DNA of 64,000 nt, taken from assembly GCA_027487215.1 (NCBI GenBank), contig JAIYDZ010000005.1, positions 1 through 64,000 on the forward strand. The letters run 5' to 3'. Of the stretch, positions 50,163 through 50,475 are shown piece after piece. Every line of letters begins with the position of its first letter. The first letter of the stretch is position 1. The notes under the pieces were generated by a model. That model was not told the DNA's origin. It was given only the letters and a program-made list of their open reading frames with translations, and ran no database searches. Source of the DNA: Pseudomonadota bacterium. GTDB lineage: Bacteria > Babelota > Babeliae > Babelales > CAIQNR01. Position numbers and translations under genes: made by a program.

Positions 50163-50475
50163 TGTGGATAAGTGGTGGATAAGTGGTGGATAAGTGGTGG
50201 ATAAAGTTGAAGACATAAAACAGGCAGCCTCTTAAAATAACCACTCAAAAAGGCATATCAGAGTTATCCACATAAGAAAACAGCTTCAGATCATGTAACC
50301 GAGAGTTATCCACAAGTTATCCACAAATTATCCACCACTTATCCACAAATGAAAAAGAGGCACTTTATGAAGCTCCGCCGCGATTTTTTAGCTCAAAAAG
50401 AGGAGTTATCCACAAAATCTGCCAAGCATATTATTATTATATTAAGTATATTTATTAACACATTAATAAATCAGA
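50163..50475. other. candidate replication origin (oriC)
   Basis: Ten DnaA-box-like 9-mers occur in 250 bp. Four face one way at 50163, 50174, 50185 and 50196 (TGTGGATAA then GGTGGATAA three times), exactly 11 bp apart. One forward TTATCCACA lies at 50264. Four forward boxes follow at 50306, 50317, 50328 and 50339 (TTATCCACA/C), again exactly 11 bp apart, and one more at 50406. Beyond it an AT-rich stretch (about 50427-50475, TATTATTATTATATT and similar) fits a DNA unwinding element. The phasing at one helical turn matches what DnaA filaments need. dnaA is not adjacent; nusA-infB follow. Genes on both sides are on the plus strand, so strand bias does not by itself mark this as the origin. Confidence 0.82.

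What the first reader, a model, noticed from the sequence alone, without database searches (positions are those of the whole stretch)
50163..50475. Candidate oriC with two opposed sets of DnaA boxes phased at 11 bp, beside nusA-infB
Ten TTATCCACA-like boxes occur in 250 bp. Two sets of four lie in opposite orientation, each with exact 11-bp spacing, and an AT-rich stretch follows. Such regular phasing is unusual: most origins have irregular box spacing. Location beside nusA-infB and away from dnaA is also unusual.
Basis: partly seen in the sequence, partly recalled or inferred. Interest (0 to 1): 0.75.

Follow-up and report, generated by a model that had tools for sequence, protein, structure and literature searches.

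The report
Dependentiae replication origin beside nusA
This stretch is almost certainly where chromosome copying starts in a whole phylum of uncultured bacterial parasites; its layout matches the E. coli origin drawn in near-perfect initiator sites, and in many relatives the melting zone carries a mirror-image second unwinding signal that could help explain how two replication forks are launched.

Summary
Confirmed and extended. Ten DnaA boxes lie in 252 bp: four reversed and four forward, each set at exactly 11-bp steps, plus a middle and a solitary box. The AT-rich DUE that follows is the least stable 60 bp of the window. GC skew changes sign here (contig minimum 50,492), as in 35 of 36 relatives tested. 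The genome belongs to Ca. Dependentiae; the same array precedes nusA in 76 of 80 relatives examined, while dnaA lies far away, near the terminus. The layout equals E. coli oriC (two opposed four-site arrays with 2-bp gaps, an R1-like solitary box, the DUE), but in consensus boxes, so the spacing is not unprecedented. In some lineages the box word changed while the geometry stayed, together with the DnaA residue equivalent to D433 (8 of 8 against 3 of 50). New: besides a standard box-spacer-DnaA-trio module (BUS), 33 of 72 origins have inverted trios at the far DUE edge (control 1 of 72), and eight have an inverted box exactly 4 or 14 bp beyond: a mirror-image BUS, a candidate answer to how the second helicase is placed. 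The window itself shows only a weak right-hand trio and no mirror box. The published Babela origin (at dnaA) is probably wrong.

The parts
50163..50204 (-). Left array: four DnaA boxes in reverse orientation (50163-71, 50174-82, 50185-93, 50196-204), 11-bp steps
   Evidence: geometry conserved in 76 of 80 relatives
50264..50272 (+). Middle DnaA box TTATCCACA between the arrays; present only sporadically in relatives
50306..50347 (+). Right array: four forward DnaA boxes (50306-14, 50317-25, 50328-36, 50339-47), 11-bp steps
50406..50414 (+). Solitary R1-like DnaA box beside the DUE, 67 bp (start to start) after the last box of the right array
   Evidence: 66-68 bp in 53 of 72 relatives, one helical turn shorter (54-56) in 9
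50415..50430 (.). 16-bp spacer between box and DnaA-trios, with a G+C-richer core (CTGCCAAGC)
   Evidence: other origins mostly 13-14 bp
50431..50439 (-). DnaA-trio-like repeat: TTA x3 on the top strand, i.e. 3'-AAT-5' trios on the bottom strand
   Evidence: left trios x3 or more in 52 of 72 origins, 7.7% in shuffles
50428..50487 (.). AT-rich DNA unwinding element; least stable 60-bp segment in the 64-kb window
50464..50469 (+). Inverted trio-like repeat TAA x2 at the far DUE edge; weak in this genome, three or more in 33 of 72 relatives
49554..50135 (+). Uracil-DNA glycosylase superfamily gene upstream of the origin; found upstream of nusA in 27 of 42 relatives
   Evidence: PF03167 E=2e-34; synteny
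50614..51678 (+). nusA, the conserved gene downstream of the origin
   Evidence: NusA_N and NusA KH domains; relatives
51722..53767 (+). infB, following nusA; found in 41 of 42 relatives

Best explanation
This is the chromosomal replication origin (oriC) of a Ca. Dependentiae (TM6, Babeliae) bacterium, of a type conserved across the phylum. Shown from sequence: two opposed arrays of consensus DnaA boxes in 11-bp phase, a solitary box about 67 bp further on, a spacer, DnaA-trios and the least stable DNA of the region, at the GC-skew switch. Inferred from E. coli and B. subtilis: DnaA-ATP builds two head-to-tail filaments on one face of the helix on the two arrays. The roughly 58 bp between the right array and the solitary box is bent so that the filament contacts DnaA on that box. 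From there DnaA is handed onto the trios of the bottom strand and opens the DUE. DciA, the helicase loader these genomes encode, then helps place DnaB, and forks leave in both directions. In many relatives an inverted trio set, and in eight an inverted box at the module's spacing, would let DnaA also grip the top strand from the other side (speculative).
For: GC skew is negative across 50 kb to the left and positive to the right, with the cumulative minimum at 50,492 in the 160 kb of contig read. The skew minimum is at the array in single-contig relatives G050, G082 and G032, and the sign flips across it in 35 of 36 relatives with flanks. Opposed phased arrays occur upstream of nusA in 76 of 80 origins; 355 of 436 neighbour steps are 11 bp and 49 are 12; the reversed-pattern control gave zero hits. 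Distances between elements move by whole helical turns. Chance level is about 0.07 boxes for 10 seen. The DUE is the least stable 60-mer of 64 kb. Left trios are found in 52 of 72 origins, 7.7% in shuffles; the box+trio composite is found at the nusA-proximal origin in most genomes. Altered box words co-occur with D-to-N/S at the E. coli D433 position: 8 of 8 against 3 of 50, Fisher p 8.6e-8, about 5 independent lineages with none discordant. The C. destructans origin was independently placed at 651641-652233 (PMC6561590), where the array lies. DciA is found in 77 of 85 genomes; a clear DnaC/IstB-type match in only 2.
Against: No experiment: no marker frequency, autonomous replication, footprint or unwinding assay. 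The Babela massiliensis authors placed its origin 152 nt upstream of dnaA (PMC4378268). G022 has no array before nusA, and G056 and G081 have degraded ones. The genome is in 7 contigs, and skew outside C5 was sampled rather than read whole. Three lineages with altered boxes kept D433. The phylogenetic sign test is limited by the number of pairs (p 0.06). The window's own trios are short (three left, two right).
Confidence: 0.95

Rival explanations
1. A DnaA titration or nucleotide-exchange site (datA/DARS-like) rather than the origin: the array soaks up or recycles DnaA, and replication starts elsewhere.
For: Dense consensus boxes would titrate DnaA strongly; in L086/G073 one array has grown to 15 consecutive boxes.
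Against: The skew minimum, the least stable DNA and DnaA-trios coincide here, and the skew flips at the site in 35 of 36 relatives. No other phased array was listed in the window's genome.
Confidence: 0.02
2. The origin lies beside dnaA, as published for Babela massiliensis, and the nusA array is secondary.
For: Published statement based on GC skew (PMC4378268).
Against: In that genome (G050; exact length 1,118,422 bp) cumulative skew falls to a minimum near 653.2 kb, about 1 kb from the array at 652.1 kb, and skew turns from + to - near 80-120 kb, the terminus side where dnaA lies. No box cluster was found at dnaA in the window's genome.
Confidence: 0.02
3. A DnaA-regulated control region for the nusA-infB operon, not a replication origin.
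For: It lies directly upstream of nusA; DnaA is a transcription factor in other bacteria.
Against: A transcriptional role does not explain the skew switch, the trios, the DUE or the E. coli-like geometry. The array keeps its shape although its distance to nusA varies (solitary box 167 to 554 bp before nusA). Dual use is possible.
Confidence: 0.01
4. The inverted repeats at the far DUE edge are a simple AT-rich palindrome (cruciform or flexible DNA) that DnaA does not bind as trios.
For: Inverted AT-rich repeats are common in origins; 39 of 72 origins, the window among them, lack three right-hand trios; only 8 have the mirror box.
Against: Three or more right-hand TA[AG] triplets in 33 of 72 against 1 of 72 for the direct-orientation control and 5% in shuffles. 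All eight exact boxes in the 120 bp beyond the solitary box are inverted and sit exactly 4 or 14 bp beyond the repeat; 14 matches the usual 13-14 bp left spacer.
Confidence: 0.4

Closest known systems
Escherichia coli oriC
   Same: Two opposed arrays of four DnaA sites with exactly 2-bp gaps (11-bp phase); a solitary R1 box across a 45-bp gap from the array; DUE beyond R1; not beside dnaA (PMC4451416; PMC10316083; dnaA position from general knowledge). R1 to R5M start-to-start is 55 bp in MG1655, equal to the 54-56 class seen in 9 of 72 relatives.
   Different: E. coli array sites are degenerate, low-affinity and ATP-DnaA-selective; here they are consensus. The window and most relatives have 67 bp, one helical turn more. 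Clear DnaA-trios here. No IHF site was established. E. coli loads helicase with DnaC; here DciA is the likely loader.
Basal unwinding system (BUS) of Bacillus subtilis and other bacteria
   Same: DnaA box, short spacer with a G+C-rich part, then three or more DnaA-trios (PMC8287927); the left spacer here is mostly 13-14 bp.
   Different: In 33 of 72 relatives a second trio set, inverted, closes the DUE on the far side, and in 8 a second inverted box completes a mirror-image module. I found no description of this in the papers searched.
Chromulinavorax destructans origin (Deeg et al. 2019)
   Same: Same locus: published origin 651641-652233 with TTATCCACA (PMC6561590); the array found here lies at 651,690 to about 651,960.
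   Different: The passages read give only location and box word, not the phased opposed arrays, the unwinding module, nusA synteny or conservation in the phylum.
Thermotoga maritima oriC
   Same: Optimal cooperative DnaA binding for same-direction boxes at 2-bp separation; trio-like TAG repeats essential in the DUE (PMC10316083).
   Different: Different box word, mixed orientations, no pair of opposed four-box arrays.

Membership tests
DnaA-dependent bacterial chromosomal origin (oriC) | GC-skew minimum at the site | tested here: met
DnaA-dependent bacterial chromosomal origin (oriC) | Cluster of DnaA boxes well above chance, the best cluster in the genome | tested here: met
DnaA-dependent bacterial chromosomal origin (oriC) | Adjacent AT-rich, unstable DNA unwinding element | tested here: met
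DnaA-dependent bacterial chromosomal origin (oriC) | A full-length DnaA in the genome and box words that follow its binding residues | tested here: met
   three lineages with altered boxes keep D433
DnaA-dependent bacterial chromosomal origin (oriC) | Replication initiates at the site in cells | not testable with these tools
   needs marker-frequency or read-depth data
E. coli-type two-armed oriC | Two opposed DnaA arrays with 2-bp gaps | tested here: met
E. coli-type two-armed oriC | Solitary high-affinity box next to the DUE across a bendable gap | tested here: met
   for box and distance; bendability not tested
E. coli-type two-armed oriC | IHF (bending protein) site in that gap | tested here: inconclusive
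   weak A-tract and T-tract columns around -42 and -20, no clear IHF consensus
E. coli-type two-armed oriC | Array sites are degenerate, low-affinity, ATP-DnaA-selective | tested here: not met
   array boxes are TTATCCACA/C consensus; affinity not measured
E. coli-type two-armed oriC | GATC/SeqA sequestration | not tested
   SeqA and Dam not searched
Basal unwinding system (BUS) | DnaA box within 16 bp of at least three DnaA-trios (criterion of PMC8287927) | tested here: met
   window: spacer 16, TTA x3; 52 of 72 origins under a stricter trio motif
Basal unwinding system (BUS) | DnaA strand separation dependent on box and trios | not testable with these tools
   needs biochemistry

The most novel reading that the evidence does not exclude
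Dependentiae origins contain two unwinding modules facing each other across one DUE (box-spacer-trios, AT core, inverted trios-spacer-inverted box). DnaA would be laid on both single strands and so place one helicase on each: a DNA-encoded, symmetric solution to loading both replication forks without a DnaD-type second recruiter. The window's lineage keeps only a reduced right half.
Probability: 0.25. Interest if true: 0.85.

Novelty: new variant of a known kind. Interest (0 to 1): 0.62.

Why it matters
How two helicases are loaded on opposite strands at a bacterial origin is named as unsolved in recent work (PMC10721633; PMC10201434). Origins with a mirror-image unwinding module, beside relatives that lack it, make that directly testable. 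The near-digital geometry in a phylum of uncultured intracellular parasites shows that the E. coli two-armed layout also exists, in consensus sites, in a distant lineage. Repeated switches of box word together with a DnaA base-contact residue form a natural experiment in initiator-origin co-evolution. The work also gives a simple rule for placing oriC in Dependentiae genomes, and probably corrects the published Babela origin.

Tried and rejected
An origin at dnaA was tested and rejected: no box cluster, wrong skew. A box scan with a fixed TTATCCACA word missed lineages with other words; a geometry-based search found them. The minus-strand loci are not turned to the match, so several origins read 'none' and were corrected. 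Rayleigh tests over several periods confirm clustering by helical turn for the array-to-array distance (best near 10.5-11), but for the solitary box the signal is dominated by the single 67-bp class and does not pick one period. A conserved protein site in the 58-bp gap was looked for; only weak A/T tracts appeared. DnaC/IstB hits are mostly the AAA domain of DnaA itself, so they were not taken as a loader. Literature searches for inverted or paired DnaA-trios gave nothing; only open-licence papers were searched, and supplementary files were not read.

Full report
Observation. On the minus strand they start at 50163, 50174, 50185 and 50196; on the plus strand at 50264, then 50306, 50317, 50328 and 50339, then 50406. 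The two sets of four have exact 11-bp steps. Dinucleotide shuffles of the window give a mean of 17 such words (up to one mismatch) in 64 kb, about 0.07 in this 252-bp stretch. Ten of the 36 TTATCCAC words of the whole 994,875-bp assembly lie here. The AT-rich stretch is the least stable 60-mer of the window (50428-50487, -56.5 kcal/mol; next -59.4).

Origin tests. GC skew is negative throughout the 50 kb to the left and positive to the right. Over the 160 kb of the 163-kb contig that I read, the cumulative minimum is at 50,492. dnaA is on another contig (C7:130481) with no box cluster around it. It lies about 48 kb from the place where skew turns from plus to minus, i.e. near the terminus.

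What organism. The nearest named relatives are Ca. Dependentiae / candidate division TM6 / Babeliales.

Conservation. A pattern of two boxes at 11 bp is found in 54 of 85 genomes of the order and 65 of 101 of the phylum, with no hit for the reversed pattern. The listed places lie just upstream of nusA where nusA is on the same contig. Reading 80 origin regions, 76 have opposed phased chains. Of 436 steps between neighbouring boxes, 355 are 11 bp and 49 are 12 bp. The solitary box lies 66-68 bp after the last array box in 53 of 72 origins, 54-56 in nine, and 90-91 in two; the array-to-array distance falls in steps of about 11 bp around 120, 131, 142, 153 and 163. Such quantisation by helical turns suggests that the elements must face the same side of the helix. 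Of 36 relatives with enough flank, 35 show negative skew before and positive skew after the array. Upstream of nusA a uracil-DNA glycosylase gene is found in 27 of 42 loci, and infB follows in 41 of 42.

Box words change, geometry does not. Some lineages use TTATCAACA or TTATCGACA (G004, G005, G013, G016, G038, G069), TTATGAACA (G023, G028), TTATGCACC (G018, G080) or TTCTCCAACA (G070), in the same layout. I read domain IV of 61 DnaA proteins. The residue equivalent to E. [quoted passage not shown] All eight have altered positions 5-6 of the box, against 3 of 50 with D (Fisher p 8.6e-8, ignoring kinship). On a tree of DnaA domains I-III there are six changes; in five independent pairs the box goes the same way 4.5 times on average and never the other way (sign test 0.06, the best that five pairs allow). 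This is strong evidence that the arrays are DnaA sites.

Unwinding module. After the solitary box comes a spacer, mostly 13-14 bp (16 in the window), and then [CT]T[AT] triplets, which read as DnaA-trios on the other strand. Three or more are present in 52 of 72 origins against 7.7% in shuffles. This meets the published BUS criterion of at least three trios within 16 bp of a box (PMC8287927). A genome-wide search for box + 4-14 bp + trios finds the composite mainly at this place; the window's own 16-bp spacer is outside that pattern.

Mirror half. At the far edge of the DUE, 33 of 72 origins carry three or more inverted triplets (TA[AG]), in 11 of 19 family groups, against 1 of 72 for the direct-orientation control in the same segment and 5% in shuffles. 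In the 120 bp beyond the solitary box there are eight exact boxes, all inverted. Each lies exactly 4 bp (G036, G041, G069, G072) or 14 bp (G045, G053, G061, G078) beyond the inverted triplets. A profile over all gaps peaks for inverted boxes at 4 and 14, and the whole-genome search recovers six of these opposed pairs. In B. subtilis the BUS has tandem boxes and a G+C-rich gap of about 4 bp, so 4 and 14 fit the near and far box positions (my inference). I read this as a second BUS facing the first. The window itself has only TAA x2 (50464-50469) and no mirror box, so in this genome the mirror half is reduced or absent.

How it likely works. Shown: sites, spacing, position, conservation, co-variation. 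Inferred: DnaA-ATP fills the two arrays as head-to-tail filaments, since 2-bp gaps are optimal for same-direction boxes in T. maritima (PMC10316083) and place DnaA on one face in E. coli (PMC4451416). The gap to the solitary box is bent, as between R5M and R1 in E. coli. DnaA passes to the trios and opens the DUE; DciA (77 of 85 genomes) rather than a DnaC-type loader (clear matches in 2 genomes) assists DnaB. Two inward-facing modules could place DnaA, and hence a helicase, on each strand; this is speculation.

Against the literature. The phased opposed arrays are not unprecedented: E. coli has four sites per arm, opposed, 2-bp gaps, and R1 across 45 bp. I checked the distance in MG1655: 55 bp start to start, equal to the shorter class here. 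What differs is the consensus quality of the array sites, the clear trios and the mirror half. The C. destructans location was published. The B. massiliensis origin was published upstream of dnaA; here its skew minimum (653,188) and array (652.1 kb) lie beside nusA, so that assignment is probably wrong. By coordinates dnaA is 83-89% of the way to the antipode in the three single-contig genomes (G050, G082, G032).

Limits. Everything is sequence. Skew of other genomes was sampled in 20-kb stretches. Most genomes are MAGs. The origins are related by descent, so counts are not independent; family spread is given where it matters.

Noticed in passing
G000:C7:130481 (dnaA); also G032, G050, G082, G034, G071: dnaA lies near the replication terminus, not the origin, in the window's genome and in relatives where both can be placed (83-89% of the way to the antipode in three single-contig genomes); the low gene dosage of the initiator could matter for control.
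   Followed up: partly
G050 (Babela massiliensis), 652.0-653.2 kb: The published origin 152 nt upstream of dnaA conflicts with the skew minimum and DnaA-box array beside nusA.
   Followed up: yes
L086 (G073), 371-680 bp before nusA: Runaway growth of the left array: 15 consecutive boxes at 11-bp steps plus 5 more, which looks like tandem duplication inside an origin.
   Followed up: no
L039 (G022), upstream of nusA: No DnaA array here; instead sequence reading like a DnaA domain IV (ARQVAMYL...KDHSTVLHG) in broken frames. Origin moved, or a dnaA fragment landed here.
   Followed up: no
L033/L088 (G070), origin before nusA: The box appears one base longer (TTCTCCAACA), together with a Thr-to-Cys change next to the DnaA HTH motif (GGRDHTCV).
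   Followed up: no
50348-50405 and the same gap in relatives: The 58-bp gap between array and solitary box has weakly conserved A-tract and T-tract columns about two turns apart (around -42 and -20); possibly a bend or protein site.
   Followed up: partly
46675-49517: Two adjacent clostripain-like ORFs (PF03415 matched for the second; the first judged by sequence resemblance) just before the origin; the preceding ORF matches only the first half of the Competence (ComEC) profile.
   Followed up: no
55607-57502: A 631-aa ORF that resembles an outer-membrane porin by eye but has no Pfam match.
   Followed up: no
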